Origin: Chloroflexus aurantiacus J-10-fl
GTDB taxonomy: Bacteria; Chloroflexota; Chloroflexia; Chloroflexales; Chloroflexaceae
Direction: 5' to 3'
Length of the DNA stretch: 64,000 nucleotides
Assembly: GCF_000018865.1 (NCBI RefSeq)
Contig: NC_010175.1
Location: 4,092,001 to 4,156,000, forward strand
The notes beneath the pieces are model-generated. The model worked only from the letters and a program-made list of their open reading frames with translations, was not told the DNA's origin and searched no databases. The position numbers and the translations under genes were made by a program. This document shows positions 4,268 to 48,134 of the stretch, in pieces; within the stretch, counting starts at the first letter, position 1; each line of letters opens with the position of its first letter.

Positions 4268-5401
4268 TTACGCGATCACCTCGACACAACTTCTGGGTAG
4301 CCAGATAGCTTCACCGCTGTCCAGCAACACTTCAACGGCGGCGGTGCGTATACCGGCAGGGATGCGTTGTGGGAGAGCAGGCAGGCTACGCACACGCCCG
4401 ATCCGCCCAAGGTGATCGTGGTCGAGCAGTCGCACCGTGGCCCCGATCCGTAATGGTGGCCGCGGTGGTTCAAGTGATGCGTTGCTGCTTCGGGACAGGG
4501 GGATGATGACTCGTGGTCGACGGTGTGGATGGCGAAGACTGGTACTACTCTCGATGTAGACTTCGCGCCGATCATTGCCGGCAAGTAATTCAAACAACGG
4601 TTTTGCCATCGGTGCACTGCCTATCCCTTCGGTCAACACAATTGTCAGTGGCGAGTCAGTCTGGGAAACCCATTGCCAGTTACGCAGACCGGGAAGAAAA
4701 GGCAGACGCTTTGTCCATTGGAAAAACTCACGCAGGACACTTTCGCTGATACTACCGATAATGATGCCACGAACCTGATTTTCAACCGCTTTGCGGAGTG
4801 CAGCAGCACTGATCCCGCTCCCCCCGATGAGCACAGCATACATGCTTTGCGCATCAATCATCGCCTCGGTGATTGGCTCGCCCGGATCAAGGGTGAGCAG
4901 GCGGGTGACACCGTAACAATCATTTCCCAGGCTGGCGATCCCGAAGATTTGGGCTGCCGGGGTTTCGATGACTACCCGTTGTTGATCGATGATTTCCATC
5001 ACAATACCGCGAATGCCGGCTGTTACGGTGATTTGCTGTGGTTCTGGCTGAAGAATTGCATAACCGGTTGCAGGATCGACGGCGTAGAGGATGCCATTAA
5101 CCGGGCTAAGGACACGGCGACTCAGCAGGCCGCGCCGGCGCGCCAGGACGGCACCGGCATTTACCGGCTGACCTATCGGTGCGACGACGGCACGAGCGGC
5201 CTGATCGGGTGGTAACGCCAGTGCCTGCGCAAGGTTAATCATGTATGGAGGATTGTGCTTCTGACCACGAGCCACAATATCGTCAGGCTCGACGCGACCA
5301 CCCTGTCTAACCAGAATTTCCCCCGGTTGGGGAAGTGTGCGATCAAGGCGAGCTACCGTGCTCTTGATAACCGGCGGTACACCATCGGGTACGTACAGCA
5401 T
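4268..5401 (-). CDS. Unrecognised protein with barrel-sandwich-like N-terminus and KOW-like C-terminus
   Basis: 377 residues with no signal peptide or membrane segment. I do not recognise the family. The first 150 residues contain repeated beta motifs (PGEILVRQGGRVEPDDIVARG and VNAGAVLARR...VLSPVNGILY), typical of barrel-sandwich hybrid folds as in lipoyl, RnfC or efflux-adaptor domains. They lack a biotin/lipoyl lysine motif. The middle part has an alpha/beta look (VLIGGSGISAAALRKAV, GIIIGSISESVLREF). The last 60 residues (GATVRLLDHDHLGRIGRVRS) resemble a KOW/SH3 barrel. ATG at 5401, weak GGAA upstream. The 277-base gap upstream (5402-5678) holds no evident gene. Confidence 0.7.
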   Translation of the reverse strand: MLYVPDGVPPVIKSTVARLDRTLPQPGEILVRQGGRVEPDDIVARGQKHNPPYMINLAQALALPPDQAARAVVAPIGQPVNAGAVLARRRGLLSRRVLSPVNGILYAVDPATGYAILQPEPQQITVTAGIRGIVMEIIDQQRVVIETPAAQIFGIASLGNDCYGVTRLLTLDPGEPITEAMIDAQSMYAVLIGGSGISAAALRKAVENQVRGIIIGSISESVLREFFQWTKRLPFLPGLRNWQWVSQTDSPLTIVLTEGIGSAPMAKPLFELLAGNDRREVYIESSTSLRHPHRRPRVIIPLSRSSNASLEPPRPPLRIGATVRLLDHDHLGRIGRVRSLPALPQRIPAGIRTAAVEVLLDSGEAIWLPRSCVEVIA

Positions 5402-5678
5402 AGTGTTTCCGTGTGTGGTGCAGGGGTGTTAACTCTGCGCAATTATACCATGTTCGCAGTGCAGACACGCAAGGTACAGTTTACTATCAGCGTTCATCTC
5501 GTGCGTTCACGAGTAGTGATCTGTCAGATGACGAGCCTTTTGCGCCTGGTGATGCATGACTCGTTTCATTTGCAATGTTTGGGCAACGATTGCCTACAGG
5601 CTAATATCTGGACTACGTTACTGCAATTATCGATCACGGTTTTCACAGCATTGGTGAGATAACCTGATGTATGTCTCG

Positions 5679-7568: not shown

Positions 7569-8474
7569 ATGGCCGATCTCTTCACACCGCTACAGGTTGC
7601 CGGTCGGCAGTTGCGCAATCGGATTGTGATGGCGCCGGCACCGAGTGGGCTGGCCGGTTCTGATGGCTTTTGCCATAGCGCTCTGATCAGTTATTACGAG
7701 CGACGAGCAAAGGCCGGGGTAGGTCTGATTGTTACTGAACCGATGCTTATTTGTGCGCCATCAACACCGACGAGTCATCTCGGTATCTGGCACGATTGTT
7801 TTGTTCCTGCACTCCGGCGGCTTTCAGCCGCAGCCCATGCGTTTGGGAGCCGGATTGTCTTTTTGCTGGAAGTTCCGCTTGCTGATATAGCAATGCCCAT
7901 GCTCGTTGAGAGCTACGTACAGGGTGCCTGGCGTGCATTAGCCGCCAGTGCAGATGGCGTATTCATCTCGGTTGCCGATGGTGGATTGTTAGCGACGATC
8001 ATTGCGGCAAATCGGCAGTCGGGTAACGGCAGGCAAATACCGATCACTGAACGTATTCTGCCGTTACTGACTATCATTGAACAGATTCGCCGAAACTATG
8101 GTCGTCACATATGGGTTGGGTTGCGTATGCCGGCAGCGGAACTGGTGGCGGATGGCCTGACCCACCAGGATGCCCGGCTGATTGCCCGACGGGCCGTGGC
8201 TGCCGGTGCGCAATTTCTGGATGTGACGATTAATCGTTATTCGCCTGATGTAGCACGCTTTCCGGGCTGGACGCTCCCCCTGGTTGCGAGTATCCATCGT
8301 ATCGCCAGTGAAGCAGTTGTGATTGGCTCCGGGCAATTGAGTGATCCGTGGCTGGCCGATGCGGCCATTCAGGACGGAAGTGTTGATTTGGTCATGCTGT
8401 GTACCGCTCTGCGGCTCTTGCCTGAATGGCCGCAACTGGCACGCCGGGTGCTGGGAATGGTCAGCGTAAAATGA
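7569..8474 (+). CDS. Degenerate Old Yellow Enzyme / NADH:flavin oxidoreductase homologue
   Basis: 301 residues, shorter than the usual 340-370. The N-terminus LFTPLQVAGRQLRNRIVMAP and YYERRAKAGVGLIVTEP are typical of the flavin-binding TIM barrel. The usual active-site segments are changed. The HxxN/HxxH region (normally EIHGAHGYLL) reads VFISVADGGLL, the QLxHAGR region reads FLLEVPLADI, and the FMN-phosphate segment normally containing GRP reads LVMLCTALRL. Flavin binding and ene-reductase activity are therefore doubtful. The last 14 bases overlap the convergent oadB-like gene. ATG at 7569 with a weak GTGAG upstream. Confidence 0.75.
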   Translation: MADLFTPLQVAGRQLRNRIVMAPAPSGLAGSDGFCHSALISYYERRAKAGVGLIVTEPMLICAPSTPTSHLGIWHDCFVPALRRLSAAAHAFGSRIVFLLEVPLADIAMPMLVESYVQGAWRALAASADGVFISVADGGLLATIIAANRQSGNGRQIPITERILPLLTIIEQIRRNYGRHIWVGLRMPAAELVADGLTHQDARLIARRAVAAGAQFLDVTINRYSPDVARFPGWTLPLVASIHRIASEAVVIGSGQLSDPWLADAAIQDGSVDLVMLCTALRLLPEWPQLARRVLGMVSVK

Positions 8475-40453: not shown

Positions 40454-43400
40454 ATGAATGCAGCACCGATCATTGAATTTCGCTTATTCGGCGTTCCACG
40501 TCTACGTTTCAATCAACGCGACATTCACTTCCGGCGCCGTCAACCGCTGGCAATTATGGCAATGCTGGCCTTGAGCGAGCGCTCGGTTACCCGTGATGAG
40601 CTGATCTATGTTCTCTGGCCGGATGTGCCCCAACCGGTTGGCCGGCAACGTCTGCGTCGCTCGCTCTGGCACCTGCGTCAGGCGATTGGTCCCCTCGCCG
40701 ATAACGTGTTGCGTGATGAACCCGGGGGAAAAGCCGAGATCCTTTCCCTCGATACCAGCCAGTGTTACATCGATGCCTGTGTCTTCGTCCAGTTGGCCGG
40801 TCAGGTTGCAGAACTACCTGATCGCGAGAGTATTCGAGTTGCCGAGCAAGCAACGCAGCTTTACACCGGGCCATTGCTGAGTGGGTTAGAACGCATCGAG
40901 TCGACAGAGTTTGAACACTGGGTATTGCAGCAGCGCGAACGCTTTGCGCGTCTTCACCTCGATGTATGGCGGCGTCTGGTTGATGGTTACACCGCGATTG
41001 CTCATTTTGAACGGGCGATCACAGCAGCCGAGCATGCGTTGGCACTTGATCCGCTCTCCGAAGCGCTACACCGCAAATTGATGTGGCTCTGCGCCCGCAC
41101 CGGACGACGTGCCGATGCGATTCATCAATTTGCATACTGCACAGCGTTGCTCCGCGAGGAATTGGGGCTTGATCCGGAAGCCATGACCTCGGCGTTGTAT
41201 CAGGCGATTTTGAATGATCAGATTGAGGATGTTTATCATCTTGCGTTCCGTGACCATAAATACCAAACCAGCAGGAGAGATGTGAGTCGGCGTCAATGGC
41301 CACCGGGTTTAGGCATAACTCATCTTCCGGCGCTGACGGAACTCCTGACACCGTTGCGTGAGGGATTGACCGGCACGCCGCAGGTTGTTTGCATACAAGG
41401 GGCAGCCGGCAGTGGGAAGAGTTATCTGGTACGGCAGGTACTGGAGACGATCCGGGGCGCGATGCCAGAGGTACAGATATGGACGGCCAGTGCGCAGCAG
41501 CTCGATACGTACATCCCCTTCGGAATGGTCAGCGATGTGTTTAATGTGGCCTTGCGTCACCGGCTCAATCAGCCATTCACCACAATGCAGGCTGCGGCAC
41601 CACCCGATCCCTGGATGAACGAGGTTGTGCGTTTGTTACCCGAACTACGGGCGATCTTTTCGCGCTTACTCCCATTTCGTGCTCCTTCGGAAACGGTGCC
41701 GCATCTGGCATATCGCCGGCTGTTGCAGGCAATACCGCGTGCATTTCAGGCGCTCATTGGTACCGATCCTGTTCTTATCGTTCTGGAAGACGTTGATCAG
41801 ACCGATCCGCTTTCTACAGAAGCGTTTGCCTGGTTTATCCGCTCCCTATCCGCTATCAAAGTGTCACTGCTCGTCACCTGTCGTGATGATAGTACGATCA
41901 AGAAGATCATCGCCGACTCAGGCATGCCTGATCGCCTGCGTTCATTTACCATTCCGCCCATCGATCAACAGGCGGTGCTCCGTCTGGCGCAGGATGCAGG
42001 ACTGAGTGTTTCTGCCGGTAAGCAACTCTGGCAGCAAACGCATGGCGAACCGTTGGCGATTCGTGAAATCTTACGCGCCATCACAATGGCTCCCGCTTCG
42101 GTTACACCACCTTCATCGCTTGCGGAGGCAGTCCATCTCCAGTTGCAGATGTGTGATGCTGCCCTACGGCGTATTGTTGAGGTGCTGGCTGTGATCTGCT
42201 GTGGAAGTGGCCTGCTTATTCAACAGGTGAGTGGCTGTACCGGCGATGAGGTTGAGGAAGCCTGTACATATTTTCAGCAACTCAATTGGATTGGTACAAC
42301 CGAGACCCACTACTTTATCGCCCATCCAGAAATTCGCGCGGCCATCCTTGCGCAGCTCAATCCGGTGCGCCGTCAGCAACTGCATCGGCAAACCGCATTA
42401 TGGCTGCGTCAGGTGAATGTAGAACCGGCACGTATTGCCTACCATTTGGAAGCGGCTGCTCAACCGGAAGAAGCTGCCCGGATGTGGCTTCAGGCTGCTC
42501 GCCGTGCCCACGCGATCTGTGTGCGCGACGCAGCGTTGTATGCGGTTCAGCGTGGTCTGGGCCTGGCCCAAGAGCGGCCGACACTGTTTGATCTGTTGTG
42601 TGAGCAAGAAACCATAACGCACGACTATGGGTTACGTTCAGAACAACAGATGGCCCTTGACGCGCTTGAACAACTTGTCAGCCAGACTCCCGATCATCCC
42701 GAATGGTGGATTGAGGTTTACCAGCGCCGTGGTCGCTATGCCCTGGTGTGTAATCGCTGGCAGGAAGCAGTTGATGCGTTGCAACGGGCTGCGGCTCACA
42801 CCTTGCATCGTGATAGCGCTATTCTGTGCTCACTTGCTCGTGCCCTCGCTCATCAGCAGAAATGGAGCGAAGCCGAGGACGTTCTCCGTCAGACGGAACA
42901 GATCGTGCAGCACCAGGATCGCGATGCTCAGATTCGCTACTGGTGTACGTATGCCGATGTTGAACAGATGCGCGAGCGCACTGCGGCGGTAGAGGGTGCG
43001 CTCAAACGGGCAGTACAGTTGTCTGAGCCGACATCACCTTTACTGCCACAGGTCATGCTTCAACTGGGGACAATTGCTGCGCTCCGTAACAACTTCACGC
43101 AAGCGTTGCTCTACGCCCAGGAAGCACAGCGCCTCTTTGCTCAACGTGGTATGCCTGATCGAGAAGCTGCCGCCGCTGTCCTGGTTGCCCGGATGCTGGC
43201 GCGGCAACATCAATATGACGAGGCATTGGCAGCCTATCAACGGGCCTATGCCGGTTATGCCGCCATCGATCTGCGCCAGGGTATGGCTGCCAGTCGCGTA
43301 AATATGGCGACGCTGCTGCTACGGTTGGGCGCATTTGCTGAAGGTGAAGCGATGGCCCGTGAGGCGTACAACCTCTTCGCAAGTGTCCAGGATGGCCGGG

Positions 43401-43981
43401 GGATGTGTGTTGCCGCCAGTAACATCGGGGCAGCACTGGTATGGGGTGGTCGTGGTGCCGATGCTGAAGTATGGCTGCGTGAATCGTATGAACGGGCCGT
43501 TGCCGTTCCGCTGCCTGCTCAACAGGCGGCAGCGCTGGCAAACCTCGGCGCAGCGCTGCTCCAGCAGGGGCGGCTGGTGGAAGCTCGCCAGATGATGGAG
43601 CAGGGCCTGGCGCTGCGGGCAGAACAGGGGCATCTCGATGTCAGTATTGATCGGGCATTTCTGGCAATGGCCTGTCTGCGTCTCGGCGATATCGACGCTG
43701 CTGACAGGCATAGCCTGGATGCTGTCGAAGACCTGATTCGGGTGCCGCAGATTGAGAACCCGCAGCAAGTCTGGTTTGCACGGGCCCAGATTCTGCGTGC
43801 TCAGGGCCGCATGACGGAAGCTGTCGCAGCTTTGAAGTCAGCGGTGGAGTGTCTCCAGCGCAGTACACATCAACTGCCGGCACAATACCAGGAACAGTAC
43901 TGTACCGTGTTTACCTTCAATCGCGCCATCCTGTGCGCCTACGACAATGATGTCTGGCCTGATCCGCCGCTGTTAGTATGA
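40454..43981 (+). CDS. Large BTAD/SARP-type transcriptional regulator with AAA ATPase and TPR repeats
   Basis: 1175 residues. An OmpR-like winged helix (about 8-95: RDELIYVLWPDVPQPVGRQRLRRSLWHLRQAI) is followed by a BTAD domain (about 100-260, LYTGPLLSGLE, LREELGLDPEAMTSALYQAI). An AAA/NACHT-like ATPase follows (about 300-580, Walker A GAAGSGKS near residue 316, Walker B-like VLIVLEDVDQTD). The C-terminal half consists of TPR-like repeats (ALANLGAALLQQGRLVEARQMMEQGLALRAE). This is the AfsR/MalT-like plan of signal-integrating activators. CTATAAT at 40351-40357 may be its -10. The next gene downstream, a secreted metzincin, is a likely target. Confidence 0.92.
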   Translation: MNAAPIIEFRLFGVPRLRFNQRDIHFRRRQPLAIMAMLALSERSVTRDELIYVLWPDVPQPVGRQRLRRSLWHLRQAIGPLADNVLRDEPGGKAEILSLDTSQCYIDACVFVQLAGQVAELPDRESIRVAEQATQLYTGPLLSGLERIESTEFEHWVLQQRERFARLHLDVWRRLVDGYTAIAHFERAITAAEHALALDPLSEALHRKLMWLCARTGRRADAIHQFAYCTALLREELGLDPEAMTSALYQAILNDQIEDVYHLAFRDHKYQTSRRDVSRRQWPPGLGITHLPALTELLTPLREGLTGTPQVVCIQGAAGSGKSYLVRQVLETIRGAMPEVQIWTASAQQLDTYIPFGMVSDVFNVALRHRLNQPFTTMQAAAPPDPWMNEVVRLLPELRAIFSRLLPFRAPSETVPHLAYRRLLQAIPRAFQALIGTDPVLIVLEDVDQTDPLSTEAFAWFIRSLSAIKVSLLVTCRDDSTIKKIIADSGMPDRLRSFTIPPIDQQAVLRLAQDAGLSVSAGKQLWQQTHGEPLAIREILRAITMAPASVTPPSSLAEAVHLQLQMCDAALRRIVEVLAVICCGSGLLIQQVSGCTGDEVEEACTYFQQLNWIGTTETHYFIAHPEIRAAILAQLNPVRRQQLHRQTALWLRQVNVEPARIAYHLEAAAQPEEAARMWLQAARRAHAICVRDAALYAVQRGLGLAQERPTLFDLLCEQETITHDYGLRSEQQMALDALEQLVSQTPDHPEWWIEVYQRRGRYALVCNRWQEAVDALQRAAAHTLHRDSAILCSLARALAHQQKWSEAEDVLRQTEQIVQHQDRDAQIRYWCTYADVEQMRERTAAVEGALKRAVQLSEPTSPLLPQVMLQLGTIAALRNNFTQALLYAQEAQRLFAQRGMPDREAAAAVLVARMLARQHQYDEALAAYQRAYAGYAAIDLRQGMAASRVNMATLLLRLGAFAEGEAMAREAYNLFASVQDGRGMCVAASNIGAALVWGGRGADAEVWLRESYERAVAVPLPAQQAAALANLGAALLQQGRLVEARQMMEQGLALRAEQGHLDVSIDRAFLAMACLRLGDIDAADRHSLDAVEDLIRVPQIENPQQVWFARAQILRAQGRMTEAVAALKSAVECLQRSTHQLPAQYQEQYCTVFTFNRAILCAYDNDVWPDPPLLV

Positions 43982-44354
43982 GATGATCACTCCACAAGAG
44001 CACCAGCTTCAGTCTACGAGTCTGAAGCTCTCCCTGACGATGCCCCCGCGAGGATTGCATAAGAGCAAGGGCAGACCTCACACCCCACCACCAGGCCGGC
44101 CATCCCGGCCTTCCACGTTCTGAGTCAGGGTTTTCATTTACCGCCTCTCCGCCCCACTGCCCTTACGGCTTTCCATGGAGTGAGGCAGATTTTGAATCTG
44201 CCGGTGATGTCAGCGATCTACATCAGGGTGTTGAAGCGATAGTGGATGGCCGAAATGAAATGCACGGCCATGTAGACGCTTTGTAGACGCTACCCTCGGT
44301 ATGCTTGAGTAACCACGATGTAGACGGCAATTGCTTTACCCAGGAGAATCTGCT
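43982..44354. other. Intergenic region between regulator and metzincin genes
   Basis: 373 bp. It holds three short inverted repeats: AGCTTCAG/CTGAAGCT at 44005-44029 (possible weak terminator), AGGCCGG/CCGGCCT near 44092, and GGCAGATT/AATCTGCC near 44184. The direct repeats listed separately follow them. Confidence 0.6.
44271..44305 (+). promoter_or_regulatory. Candidate SARP operator and promoter
   Basis: TGTAGACGC occurs at 44271-44279 and again at 44282-44290, an exact 11-bp period. A -10-like TATGCT follows at 44300-44305, 9 bp after the second repeat. A third TGTAGACG lies at 44319-44326. The geometry matches known SARP binding sites (11-bp direct repeats just upstream of -10). It lies about 65-85 bp before the metzincin ATG and downstream of the BTAD regulator. 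Confidence 0.5.
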
Positions 44355-47300
44355 ATGAAACAGCTCATCTATCTTATCCTTGCGATAAGCCTGATCAGTA
44401 GCTCGGCGTCATTGACTTTTGCTCAGCATACGCTGCCGGCATCGCACGGGGTACAAGGGGAAACCGGTTCGGTGAATGGCACGCTTGCCACCATTCCAGA
44501 CGCCTGGGCAGATGACGTATACTATTTCCCGTTAACGTTACACAACAGCGTTGTCTTCTGGCCTGGATCGCCACCATCCTGCTCACCCACGTTAGAGTTC
44601 CCTGATCCTTGTCAAATCTCCAGTCGTACTGCGAATGGCGCACCTTCAACAAGCACTGCCCGTCTCTTGCACAATGCCGGCAATACCGGACCATTCATCA
44701 AATCGAACCTCGCCGTTGACGACACACATGTATACTGGATCGGTAGCGACTTCCAGATCAAACGCTTACCGCGTAGCGCTACAACCACGACGACGCCAGA
44801 GGTGATCGGAAGCACAACGTATACCACCTCAACCCTGCGCTTCGAGATTGATGTAGACGCCAACTACATCTTCTGGATAGAGAGCAATACTGCGTCGCCG
44901 ATTTCGGGTCGGTTGTTTCGCATGCCAAAATCGGGTGGTGCAGTACAACTGATGGCGGAACGTACTATCAGTGGCTTCGGTGCAGGGTATTTTGAGAAAT
45001 TGCGCGCCGATGGTTCTGGCGGTGCGTATTATGTGTCTACCTTCTTCAGCAGCCTGTTTCGTACTGTTCCAGACGGTGCCGGCTTCACCTCTACCTTTCT
45101 TGGAATTGCCGGTGTTGCTTCCTATGCCCTTAGCAGTTCTCATATCTACTGGGCAGAGAGGCTCGCTAACCTCGTCATCAAACGTGCACCGCGCAGCAAT
45201 CCCAGCGCTGTTGAGACTCTGGCGAATCGGGGCAACACCGGTACCCCCACAGCACCGGTCATTGCCGTCGACAACCTGAATGTCTACTGGCAAGAGGTGC
45301 GTGGGTCTACTGGCCCTATCTTTCGGCTGGCGTTAAGTGGTGGTACACCAGAGCAAATTACCGATAACCAGGGTGCTGCTCTGGCTCTGGCGAGTAATGG
45401 CCGCTACCTCTTCTGGAATAACGGCACAATGTACCGTTTGCCGGTCAATGCTTCGACCTGGACGCTTGATCTGGATGTGACGGGCCTGGAAGTGGTGCAG
45501 ATAGTTCAAAACCCGAATAACGATGTGCCCCTGGTAAGTGGCAAGGAGACGTTTGTGCGCGTCTTCCCACGTATTCTCAGTAGTTCACCGTCCAGGGCTA
45601 CGGTCGATCTATGGCCGAATGTCCTGCTGTACGGGACACGCGGTGGTACACCGCTGCCCGACTCGCCGCTTGAACCGGTGTATTACGTCGGCAATGCGCG
45701 TAGTGTGGGATCGACCATTGATCGGCGCGACATCAATAGTGGGGTCTGGTTCCGCCTGCCGGCTTCCTGGGCAGATGGGACAGTACAGTTGCGTGCTGTC
45801 GTCAATCCCCGCCGTGTGCAAACTGAGACCAACTATACTAATAACGAAGTGTCACGGACGGTCTCGTTTGTGCGGAAAGCCCCGATCTGTCTGGACATCA
45901 AACCGGTCAGCACCGAGCGTGGGGTAACCATTTCGGCATGGCCCCGCGATGAAGGGGCACGGCGCTTCATCCAGTCTTTCTTCGTTCGTGCAGAGCAGTT
46001 GTTACCTACGCATGAACTGCGGGTCTTTATGCGTGGCGGTGATCCATTGCGCAAACCGCGCTGGTATCTCTTTGAGAGCGATCCGTTTGGTCTGTCGCGC
46101 ACCAACGCCGATAGCGGATGGATGCTCTTCCTGCTCAAACTCAACACTCTCTTCGATAGCAATCTGTGTAGCGATGGCGGCAGGACGCTGCGTACCGTGA
46201 TGGCGCAGGATTTTCCCGACCGTGAAGTCAATGGGATGAATCTTGAAGACACGGTGCTGTTTTTCACCTTCTGGAACCCTAATGGTAATTTTGCCCAGAA
46301 TGTGCCGGGTGGTGGCGTGACCCTGGCGCATGAGATTGCTCATGCGTATGGTCGCGGTCATATTAACTGTCCGGTGGGAACCCCTGATGGTGTTGATGGG
46401 AGCTATCCGCATCCGACCTGCCAGATCGGTACTCCTGGCCCGAATGAGTTTCTCGGTTTCGACTCCGGTCTGAGTCGCAGGTTTGGTCAACCGCCGAGTC
46501 TCCTCTTGCCAGAGACAACCGGCGATCTGATGTCATACGCGCATCATATTCCGCGACCACGCTGGACATCGAATTATACCTGGCAAGGCATCTTCAACCA
46601 GATCAGTAATCGTAGCCTGGCGGTCGCAGATACCGGAGAAGATGTTTCGATTGCTCAGTCCACCGTCTCATTCATTGTCACCGGCTTCATTTCAGGGACG
46701 GTTGCTGAAATGCGCGAGTCGTTCCAGTTGCCTGAACCACTGCTTAGCCAGGTCACTGCTCAGATCAACGCCAGTACAGTAGAAAGCTCTGAGTATCGTA
46801 TTCGGGCATTCAACGGCACAACACTGCTCGCCGACCGACCGTTGCGTGTTGCCGAGGCTGACGGTGATCTGGCGCCCGGTACATCGGAACCGGATCTGAT
46901 TGGCTTTTTCCAGCGTCTCGATCTGACGCAGCGTCCTACCCGGATCGAGATTGTTCAGGTGGGAGGTAGTAGTATCGGTGGGCTGAATGTCAGCCCCAAT
47001 CCGCCTACAGTGTCGATTACTGCGCCCACCGCAGGCAGTACTGTGAATCGCACGCTGACCGTAAGCTGGAATGCCAGCGATCCGGATGGTGGCGTTCTGC
47101 ATCATATGGTGCGCTACAGTGCCGATAATGGTACCACCTGGACGGTCATTGCTCAGGGTCTGACGGCCAATACGCTCAACGTAGATATTGCCAGCTTACC
47201 GGGTGGCACGGCACGTGTGCAGGTTATTACCACCGACGGCTTGAATACCGCGATTGCCACATCTGCGGCGTTCTCGGTGGCACGTCGCACACCGGAGGTG

Positions 47301-48134
47301 TCGATCTTACTGGAAGGCGGACCTGTATTTGCGCCGGGCGACTCGATCACCCTGCGGAGCCGGGCCTACGATCCAGAAGACGGTTTTCTGAGTGGCTCAC
47401 GATTGCAGTGGCAAATTACCGGCCCGCTCAGTATTACCGGTGATGGCGGGCAGTTAACCCTGCTCAACCTGCCGCCCGGCCTCTACACGGCTCGCCTCCA
47501 GGCAACTGATAGCGATAGCGGTAGTGGTGAGGATACTATTCAATTCTCTGTTTCACCCAAACGGATCAGCGATGATAGTACTGCACCGGTTGTCGATGGT
47601 TTCTGTGAAGATGCTGCCTACAACGCCGATCCACACCCTGTATCACTCCGCTACAATGAAGGCACTCCCTCGGCAACAGCGGCGCAGGTGCGGTTTGTGC
47701 GCGTAGGAGCGTACCTGTATGCCTGCTTCAGCGGCCTACCGCTCAGCACAAGTGCCACGGAAGCAGCCATCTTGAAATTCGATCTCAACAACAGTGCCGA
47801 TGCACTGCAACAGGCGGACGACCTGATTATGCTGATCCAACGCGATGGCGTTGTCCGCAGTGGGCGTGGTAATGGCAGTGTGAACGATGTCTTCGACCCG
47901 ATCCCGCAGAGCGTGACCGGAGCGGTAAGTGCCGGTACCACCAGTTGGAGTGCGGAAATGCAGATAGCGGTTGACCGCTTTGGGGGTTGGGATCGATTTG
48001 TGCGCATGCTGGTTGCCCATGATACCCGATCAGCCTGGCCGCGGGGAAGCGTTGCCTACGAACCGCAGCGCTGGGGAGTGACAATGCTGGGAGAGGTGAA
48101 CTATCGGGTGAACCTGCCGTTGGTCGTCAAGTAA
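44355..48134 (+). CDS. Large secreted metzincin-type metalloprotease with beta-propeller and Ig-like domains
   Basis: 1259 residues. Signal peptide (LIYLILAISLISSSASLTFA). Residues about 110-370 hold at least five repeats of the VDDTHVYWI / SSHIYWAE / DNLNVYWQE type, suggesting a beta-propeller. A CARDB-like part (about 375-505, NYTNNEVSRTV) follows. The catalytic domain holds HEIAHAYGRGH at residues 659-669 (HEXXHXXGXXH zinc site) and the Met-turn LMSYA near residue 726. Ig/PKD-like domains (about 890-1080) come next, then a CBM9/DOMON-like end (VDGFCEDAAY). The last residues are VNLPLVVK, like other Chloroflexota secreted proteins. GGAGAA precedes the ATG. Confidence 0.88.
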   Translation: MKQLIYLILAISLISSSASLTFAQHTLPASHGVQGETGSVNGTLATIPDAWADDVYYFPLTLHNSVVFWPGSPPSCSPTLEFPDPCQISSRTANGAPSTSTARLLHNAGNTGPFIKSNLAVDDTHVYWIGSDFQIKRLPRSATTTTTPEVIGSTTYTTSTLRFEIDVDANYIFWIESNTASPISGRLFRMPKSGGAVQLMAERTISGFGAGYFEKLRADGSGGAYYVSTFFSSLFRTVPDGAGFTSTFLGIAGVASYALSSSHIYWAERLANLVIKRAPRSNPSAVETLANRGNTGTPTAPVIAVDNLNVYWQEVRGSTGPIFRLALSGGTPEQITDNQGAALALASNGRYLFWNNGTMYRLPVNASTWTLDLDVTGLEVVQIVQNPNNDVPLVSGKETFVRVFPRILSSSPSRATVDLWPNVLLYGTRGGTPLPDSPLEPVYYVGNARSVGSTIDRRDINSGVWFRLPASWADGTVQLRAVVNPRRVQTETNYTNNEVSRTVSFVRKAPICLDIKPVSTERGVTISAWPRDEGARRFIQSFFVRAEQLLPTHELRVFMRGGDPLRKPRWYLFESDPFGLSRTNADSGWMLFLLKLNTLFDSNLCSDGGRTLRTVMAQDFPDREVNGMNLEDTVLFFTFWNPNGNFAQNVPGGGVTLAHEIAHAYGRGHINCPVGTPDGVDGSYPHPTCQIGTPGPNEFLGFDSGLSRRFGQPPSLLLPETTGDLMSYAHHIPRPRWTSNYTWQGIFNQISNRSLAVADTGEDVSIAQSTVSFIVTGFISGTVAEMRESFQLPEPLLSQVTAQINASTVESSEYRIRAFNGTTLLADRPLRVAEADGDLAPGTSEPDLIGFFQRLDLTQRPTRIEIVQVGGSSIGGLNVSPNPPTVSITAPTAGSTVNRTLTVSWNASDPDGGVLHHMVRYSADNGTTWTVIAQGLTANTLNVDIASLPGGTARVQVITTDGLNTAIATSAAFSVARRTPEVSILLEGGPVFAPGDSITLRSRAYDPEDGFLSGSRLQWQITGPLSITGDGGQLTLLNLPPGLYTARLQATDSDSGSGEDTIQFSVSPKRISDDSTAPVVDGFCEDAAYNADPHPVSLRYNEGTPSATAAQVRFVRVGAYLYACFSGLPLSTSATEAAILKFDLNNSADALQQADDLIMLIQRDGVVRSGRGNGSVNDVFDPIPQSVTGAVSAGTTSWSAEMQIAVDRFGGWDRFVRMLVAHDTRSAWPRGSVAYEPQRWGVTMLGEVNYRVNLPLVVK

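What the first reader, a model, noticed from the sequence alone, without database searches (positions are those of the whole stretch)
40454..48134. BTAD regulator, SARP-like operator and secreted metzincin as one regulatory unit
Seen: an exact 11-bp-period direct repeat (TGTAGACGC at 44271 and 44282), a TATGCT 9 bp further on, and a third TGTAGACG at 44319. These sit between a giant BTAD/AAA/TPR regulator and a 1259-residue secreted metzincin. Known: SARP regulators with BTAD domains (ActII-ORF4, DnrI) bind 11-bp direct repeats about 8 bp upstream of -10. Inferred: the regulator activates the protease gene in response to a signal sensed by the ATPase/TPR part.
Basis: partly seen in the sequence, partly recalled or inferred. 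Interest (0 to 1): 0.72.

Follow-up and report, generated by a model that had tools for sequence, protein, structure and literature searches.

The report
Chloroflexus surface-protein regulator and its operator
A large antibiotic-type (SARP) regulator in photosynthetic Chloroflexus bacteria very probably switches on genes for secreted and surface proteins, including a big protease, by reading a short repeated DNA word that in related genomes occurs only where the regulator occurs.

Summary
The repeat is real: TGTAGACGC at 44271-44279 and 44282-44290 (11-bp period), TATGCT at 44300. It is a conserved operator. In 82 genomes of the order, TGTRGACGNNNTGTRGACGC occurs exactly in 12; 11 have the regulator at E<=1e-60 and the twelfth has it in fragments. 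None of the other 68 genomes has a site; the reversed control pattern hits 0 of 82. In 11 of 13 testable loci a site lies 14-563 bp after the regulator's stop codon. In three Chloroflexus genomes the metzincin is not beside the regulator yet carries the operator, so regulation acts in trans. In 19 of 22 sites a -10-like NANNNT begins 8 nt after the repeat (window: TATGCT at 9 nt); no site has a fair -35. This is the published SARP/AfsR promoter geometry. The N-terminal 264 residues model well and match AfsR and EmbR best. Targets look exported or membrane-bound: two metzincin-like proteins, DUF3592, lipoproteins, CSLREA and DUF6345 proteins. The third TGTAGACG (44319) is not conserved. Best reading: an AfsR-like large SARP, outside Actinobacteria, driving a small surface/secreted-protein regulon whose cassettes seem to have moved between Roseiflexus and Chloroflexus. 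Binding, activation and the signal are untested.

The parts
40454..43981 (+). BTAD/AAA/TPR regulator, 1175 aa, large-SARP architecture
   Evidence: orthologues at 49-59% identity in Chloroflexus, Roseiflexus and Roseilinea
40454..41245 (+). SARP module: OmpR-type winged helix plus BTAD (residues 1-264)
   Evidence: AlphaFold2 pLDDT 91.1 for the best of five models; Foldseek best hits AfsR 8k60 E 9e-11 TMq 0.75 and EmbR 2ff4; Pfam BTAD 107-253, 8.4e-24
40631..40681 (+). recognition helix region, residues 60-76; R64-R69 and R75 invariant in the 11 homologues aligned
   Evidence: AfsR contact residues from PMC10936776, mapped by me through the alignment; the more distant G058 has H at 75
41333..41875 (+). 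AAA_16 ATPase domain (residues 294-474), Walker-A-like GAAGSGKS at 316-323
   Evidence: invariant G316, A318, G319, G321, K322 in 5 orthologues
43307..43867 (+). TPR region (MalT-like match at residues 952-1138, below Pfam's cut-off; several other TPR models above theirs)
44271..44279 (+). operator, upstream repeat TGTAGACGC
   Evidence: conserved
44282..44290 (+). operator, downstream repeat TGTAGACGC
   Evidence: conserved
44300..44305 (+). predicted -10 element TATGCT (9 nt after the repeat; 8 nt at most other sites); no fair -35
44312..44312 (+). predicted transcription start (inference from -10 spacing)
   Evidence: position inferred and AfsR promoter geometry
44319..44326 (+). third TGTAGACG: present but not conserved, probably not part of the operator
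44355..48134 (+). METZ1, 1259-aa secreted metzincin-like protein (N-terminus like a signal peptide by eye, HExxHxxGxxH, Ig domain)
46329..46361 (+). zinc-site motif HEIAHAYGRGH (residues 659-669)

Best explanation
The 1175-aa protein is a large SARP (winged helix + BTAD + STAND-type ATPase + TPR). Two protomers bind side by side on the two 11-bp repeats TGTRGACG-NNN. The box ends 8 nt (9 in the window) upstream of a -10 and replaces a missing -35, so the bound SARP module docks sigma region 4 and recruits RNA polymerase, as AfsR does. An unknown signal, read by the ATPase/TPR half, would release the module. The target set is a small regulon of exported or membrane proteins: the neighbouring metzincin-like protease and, at 379-382 kb in the same genome, a CSLREA/choice-of-anchor protein and a DUF3592 protein. 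Shown by computation: the operator, its conservation, its co-occurrence with the regulator, its promoter geometry and the genes behind it. Inferred: binding by this protein, activation, and the sensing step.
For: Co-occurrence over 82 genomes of the order: exact sites in 12; 11 of these have the regulator at E<=1e-60 and the twelfth (G017) has it in fragments at 3e-55; 0 of the 68 others have an exact site; reversed control 0 of 82. Held-out loci: 5 of 5 new regulator loci that extend past the stop codon have an exact site 72-383 bp downstream; two more found (G071; G058, 35% identity) have it at 377 and 563 bp. Trans test: in G002, G004 and G005 the metzincin is on another contig than the regulator yet has the operator. 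Geometry: NANNNT 8 nt after the repeat in 19 of 22 sites, 0 of 22 at 6, 7 or 10 nt (background 0.066 on the first 20 sites); best -35 match 1 or 2 of 6 bases at every site. Published SARP rule: 11-bp repeats, 3' repeat 8 bp from the -10 (PMC10936776 passages). Fold: AfsR and EmbR best; a PDB sequence search with the window protein also puts AfsR first, 3.6e-8. In the 20 counted sites examined a candidate start codon with a 4-6 of 6 match to AGGAGG lies 39-172 nt on (a weak criterion; one start per site chosen by eye); most of the proteins look exported or membrane-spanning by eye.
Against: No binding or expression data. G004 has no site after its regulator, and the distant relative G029 (30%) has no exact site. 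The window's own spacing is 9, not 8. The only piece of the G017 regulator found lacks the DNA-binding domain. The clean control holds for exact matches only: with 1 mismatch allowed the reversed pattern gave 17 hits in 41 genomes, with 2 allowed 11 hits in 8 genomes. A residue-73/base-4 covariation seen failed its test in G058, which has Q73 with G/G repeats. Many of the regulator genomes are close relatives, so the counts are not independent. Whether it activates or represses is not shown by sequence.
Confidence: 0.87

Rival explanations
1. The operator is read by another OmpR-fold protein, such as a PhoB/PhoP-type response regulator, which also uses 11-bp direct repeats next to the -10; the BTAD gene is only a neighbour.
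For: PhoP and AfsR share a site in Streptomyces (review PMC10972967, passage). Winged-helix response regulators bind tandem 11-bp repeats (recalled).
Against: Presence follows this regulator, including its absence from G001, G006 and G007; a site follows the regulator gene in 11 of 13 testable loci in several genomic contexts. No response regulator was tested for co-occurrence.
Confidence: 0.07
2. The regulator binds the box but represses, or only modulates, the genes.
For: Sequence alone does not give the sign.
Against: The box replaces the -35 at a nearly fixed distance from a weak -10 and no site has a fair -35; such promoters should be poor without an activator. In AfsR the same geometry activates.
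Confidence: 0.05
3. The repeat is a copy of a dispersed or mobile DNA repeat, or chance.
For: Two of the three copies in the window genome lie in what looks by eye like a local duplication, some kilobases from a recombinase-like gene.
Against: Only 1-3 exact copies per site-bearing genome; by eye the flanks are alike only among close relatives; nearly all sites have a -10 and a gene start behind them; about 0.003 expected per genome.
Confidence: 0.01

Closest known systems
AfsR (Streptomyces coelicolor large SARP; PDB 8hvr, 8jke, 8k60)
   Same: Winged helix + BTAD + NTPase + TPR; 11-bp repeats 8 bp from the -10 with a poor -35; DNA-backbone contacts Q48, W74, R87 and R94 correspond to Q30, W55, R68 and R75 (my mapping).
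   Different: Operator TGTRGACGNNN rather than CGTT(T/C)ATCGNN; base-contact positions T88 and R92 are R69 and H73 (Q or E in relatives); NCBIfam AfsR profile matches at 77 bits against a cut-off of 1430; targets are surface/secreted proteins, not afsS.
DnrI / ActII-ORF4 small SARPs
   Same: Direct repeats overlapping the -35 region (review passages).
   Different: Small SARPs lack the ATPase and TPR half and control antibiotic clusters; their repeat words differ (recalled).
EmbR (Mycobacterium tuberculosis; 2fez, 2ff4)
   Same: Same winged helix + BTAD fold, TMq 0.73-0.78.
   Different: EmbR carries an FHA domain instead of ATPase + TPR.
MalT-type STAND regulators
   Same: ATPase plus MalT-like TPR region (TPR_MalT 1.1e-4, below Pfam's cut-off).
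   Different: DNA-binding module is N-terminal SARP, not C-terminal LuxR-type (the latter recalled).

Membership tests
SARP family (large SARP) | N-terminal OmpR-type winged helix followed by BTAD | tested here: met
   Pfam itself reported no winged-helix family for residues 1-106, so the winged helix rests on the model and the AfsR/EmbR alignments
SARP family (large SARP) | C-terminal NTPase and TPR | tested here: met
   AAA_16 294-474 and TPR matches; Walker-A residues invariant in 5 orthologues
SARP family (large SARP) | 11-bp direct repeats, 3' copy 8 bp from the -10, poor -35 | tested here: met
   19 of 22 sites at 8 nt; the window itself 9 nt
SARP family (large SARP) | binds the repeats and activates transcription | not testable with these tools
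   comparative evidence only
AfsR equivalog (NF053617) | score above the curated cut-off | tested here: not met
   77.1 bits against 1430: works like AfsR, is not AfsR
metzincin (METZ1) | HExxHxxGxxH | tested here: met
   5 of 5 METZ1 proteins
metzincin (METZ1) | Met-turn | tested here: inconclusive
   GDLMSY in the window and GDVMSY in L123; the 5-sequence consensus reads GDLLSY with S727 and Y728 invariant but not the Met
metzincin (METZ1) | match to a curated peptidase family or metzincin fold | tested here: inconclusive
   no Pfam peptidase above cut-off; AlphaFold2 model failed, pLDDT 35.6; no peptidase in the PDB profile search apart from a weak ColH Ig-type match, E 0.68

The most novel reading that the evidence does not exclude
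Chloroflexota carry a phylum-wide set of BTAD-ATPase-TPR regulators, each with its own 11-bp operator built as a variable 5' four-mer plus a constant GACG, followed 8 nt later by a -10. They control separate sets of surface proteins that are exchanged between Roseiflexus and Chloroflexus as cassettes and can swap the protease while keeping the operator (METZ1 for METZ2 in G003). Two paralogue-type operators, CGAGGACGTTTTGAGGACGC and TCCTGACGTTTTCCTGACGC, each followed 8 nt later by TANNNT, already fit.
Probability: 0.35. Interest if true: 0.72.

Novelty: new member of a known kind. Interest (0 to 1): 0.6.

Why it matters
SARPs are known mainly as switches of antibiotic clusters in actinomycetes. 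Here the same promoter logic appears in phototrophic Chloroflexota, before genes for secreted proteases and surface proteins. The regulator, operator, -10 and target list are all named, so the open question of what a large SARP's ATPase/TPR half senses could be tested in a small regulon. BTAD homologues outside actinomycetes are noted in print (Deinococcus radiodurans, PMC1262709, passages). Five searches of the open-access library found no description of SARP or BTAD regulation in Chloroflexota: 2 papers; passages checked: neither gives a Chloroflexus BTAD protein there; 20 of 22 listed; 10 of 230 listed; 0 papers. The papers were seen as listings only, apart from PMC10972967 (passages), so this is not proof of absence.

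Tried and rejected
Autoregulation: no operator in the 400 bp upstream of 9 regulator genes examined; best 5-8 mismatches. Third repeat as part of the operator: rejected, absent at the 22 other places. Residue-73/base-4 covariation: H73 with A 6 of 6, Q73 13 A and 11 G, E73 with G 8 of 8, but G058 (Q73, G/G) broke the prediction, so it is not used as evidence. Operator remnants before five DUF3592 homologues without a known site (G007 pseudogene, G006, a second G000 copy, two G003 copies): none, best 5-8 mismatches. Rows dropped before counting: the 1-mismatch site in G029 overlaps the end of a gene on the other strand; two 1-mismatch hits (L130, L136) lack a -10 at 8-9 nt; L126 (1 mismatch, TACATT at 8 nt) looks real but was not counted in the 22; the 2-mismatch hits were not counted. 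First genome-contig scan with one sequence found nothing; the alignment query worked. Metzincin structure model failed. C-terminal-signal papers: nothing relevant by title in the listing.
Full report
OBSERVATION. The window is G000:C1:4092001-4156000 of a one-contig genome of 5,258,541 bp; that size is, from recall, that of Chloroflexus aurantiacus J-10-fl. The pair is unique in the genome. The regulator (1175 aa) and the metzincin-like protein (1259 aa) are as described.

CONSERVATION, FIRST LOOK. Of 8 Chloroflexus genomes (the window's included), 5 have the regulator (the other four at 50-59% identity) and 3 (G001, G006, G007) have only remote paralogues. The metzincin METZ1 has full-length orthologues in G002, G004 and G005 and a C-terminal remnant in G003. 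In G002, G004 and G005 the metzincin and the regulator lie on different contigs of draft genomes and in different gene neighbourhoods, yet TGTAGACGTTTTGTGGACGC stands upstream of each of these metzincins. In G002 and G005 the gene next to the regulator is instead a DUF3592 protein, with TGTAGACGCCGTGTGGACGC before it; in G003 it is another, mostly unrelated, LamG/HExxH protein (METZ2), with TGTAGACGTTGTGTGGACGC before it. So the operator follows the regulon, not the gene order.

CO-OCCURRENCE. In the genus, exact sites occurred in the 5 regulator genomes and in none of the other 3. In 41 genomes of the family, exact sites occurred in G000, G002-G005 and G017; G017 is one of only three genomes outside the genus with a regulator match at 1e-40, the others being G029 and G031. 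In 82 genomes of the order, the regulator (E<=1e-60) is in 13 and an exact site in 12; 11 genomes are shared. The twelfth site genome is G017, whose regulator is split on a short contig; the two regulator genomes without an exact site are G029 (30% identity) and G073 (the match runs to the contig end). The remaining 68 genomes include G031, whose 37% match over residues 3-343 is below this threshold, and many with other BTAD paralogues; none has an exact site. The reversed control pattern gave 0 of 82 exact matches, but 17 hits in 41 genomes with 1 mismatch and 11 in 8 genomes with 2, so only exact matches are informative on their own. Fisher p for the 41-genome table is 6e-6, but the genomes are related, so this is descriptive only. 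Expected exact matches are about 0.003 per genome.

HELD-OUT LOCI. A profile search of named genomes gave 10 regulator loci, including Roseiflexus, Candidatus Roseilinea mizusawaensis, C. islandicus and a Thermoflexales bacterium. Roseilinea is placed in class Anaerolineae by a title in the listing, so the pairing is not limited to one class. Five loci were new and extended past the stop codon: 5 of 5 have an exact site 72-383 bp downstream, in the same direction. L119, L121 and L125 are G005, G004 and G002 again; L122 and L124 end inside the gene. Adding G071 (377 bp) and G058 (563 bp, 35% identity, another family), and counting all loci with downstream DNA, 11 of 13 have a site within 563 bp; the exceptions are G004 and G029. 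In the seven genomes behind the named loci, a slightly shorter pattern with 1 mismatch gave 11 hits and the control 4.

GEOMETRY. The 22-site set is the 19 exact sites plus three from Roseilinea (one of these has T as the last base). A -10-like NANNNT starts 8 nt after the repeat in 19 of 22 and TANNNT in 17 of 22; offsets 6, 7 and 10 give 0 of 22; the window has TATGCT at 9 nt; the other two at 8 nt read TATGAG and CATATC. Background NANNNT in the flanks is 0.066, measured on the first 20 sites. The best -35 match at 15-19 nt spacing is 1 or 2 of 6 bases at every site. With the -10 at -12 to -7, an 8-nt site places the repeats at -40 to -30 and -29 to -19, which is where the afs box lies (PMC10936776, passages read); the window is one base further upstream. 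Two of the three G000 sites lie in what looks like a local duplication and are not independent.

REGULATOR. AlphaFold2 on an alignment of 11 homologues gives pLDDT 91 for residues 1-264 in the best model (63-91 over the five). Foldseek ranks AfsR (TMq 0.75) and EmbR first. AfsR's backbone contacts Q48, W74, R87 and R94 map to Q30, W55, R68 and R75, all invariant in the 11-sequence alignment (G058, not in it, has H at 75); its base-contact residues T88 and R92 map to R69 and H73 (Q or E elsewhere), fitting a different DNA word (mapping mine). NCBIfam's AfsR model scores 77 bits, far below its cut-off. In AfsR the ATPase and TPR parts inhibit the SARP part and ATP relieves this; the same is inferred here.

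TARGETS. The genes after the sites are METZ1 (G000, G002, G004, G005, L123), METZ2 (G003, G071), DUF3592 proteins (G000, G002, G004, G005; further downstream in G003, G071, L123, L116), DUF3108-like lipoproteins (L120, L123), a CSLREA/choice-of-anchor protein (G000; G058 at 69% identity; L117 has a choice-of-anchor Q match), a DUF6345/Ig protein (L116, with a similar N-terminus in L118), a peptide that looks like a Flp pilin and a 56-aa peptide (G017), and two uncharacterised proteins of Roseilinea. Most begin with what looks by eye like a signal peptide or membrane segment; no signal-peptide program was run.

EVOLUTION. The window regulator groups with Roseiflexus, G003, L116 and L117 (support 95/99), apart from C. 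islandicus, G004 and G005 (100/100; the tree also holds long-branched and partial rows). METZ1 agrees: 75-76% identical to Roseiflexus 629F.7 but 56-58% to the other Chloroflexus proteins, and the two pair in a tree (84/98). G003's cassette (regulator, operator, METZ2, DUF3592) resembles that of G071, whose METZ2 is 89% identical; the 5,801,598-bp size of G071 is, from recall, that of Roseiflexus sp. RS-1. Transfer of the cassette between the two genera is the simplest reading. In G007 the regulator is missing from what looks by its neighbours like the locus where relatives have it, and the DUF3592 gene there has stop codons and no operator; G003 keeps a METZ1 tail after METZ2.

WIDER LEAD. 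Around BTAD paralogues, a scan for 11-bp repeats followed by TANNNT gave 4 hits in 27 upstream regions against 0.45 in shuffles and 6 intergenic hits in 20 neighbourhoods against 1.2; several of the six look like chance and 14 of the 20 neighbourhoods gave none. Two sequences share the form NNNNGACGTTTNNNNGACGC-N8-TANNNT with another four-mer; one is present in both G002 and G007. Over all loci held, a search for that form found 18 of the known operators and 4 other entries (L015 and L168, the conserved pair; L026/L159; and L100, probably inside a regulator gene), with 1 hit in a single shuffle.

LITERATURE. PMC10936776: abstract, passages and section 7 read. PMC10972967, PMC1262709 and PMC12590107: passages read. 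The remaining papers were seen only as search listings.

Noticed in passing
L037 9374-13213; L038 5903-9667; L044 7204-10794; L057 7872-9353 and 12240-14543; L089, L091, L117, L152: Large secreted-looking proteins end in a short motif such as YLPLVVK, HLPLVLKQ or FLPVLLKQ: 11 of 321 ORFs of 200 aa or more matched at the C-terminus against 0.13 expected from internal density (several of the 11 are orthologues). The window METZ1 ends in the similar NLPLVVK but fell outside the expression used. It looks like a Chloroflexota C-terminal sorting or anchor signal.
   Followed up: partly
L168 2801 (-), L015 430 (-), L159 3141 (-): Other 11-bp repeats near BTAD paralogues, CGAGGACGTTTTGAGGACGC and TCCTGACGTTTTCCTGACGC, each with TANNNT 8 nt on: possible operators of other BTAD regulators.
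   Followed up: partly
L093 about 5096-5525 (G007): DUF3592 pseudogene with stop codons at what looks like the locus where relatives have the regulator; regulator and operator both gone.
   Followed up: partly
L037 13213-13720 (G003): A METZ1 C-terminal remnant lies between METZ2 and DUF3592, as if METZ2 replaced METZ1 under a kept operator.
   Followed up: partly
L044 7204-10794 (G000 982-986 kb): A second, 26%-identical HExxHxxGxxH paralogue of the metzincin (HEIAHMLGRHH); the genome-wide search finds no exact operator there.
   Followed up: no
L151, reverse-complement coordinates 8101-8157 (G058): Two divergent operators 17 bp apart, one exact and one on the opposite strand with 1 mismatch, between the regulator and the CSLREA protein.
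   Followed up: no
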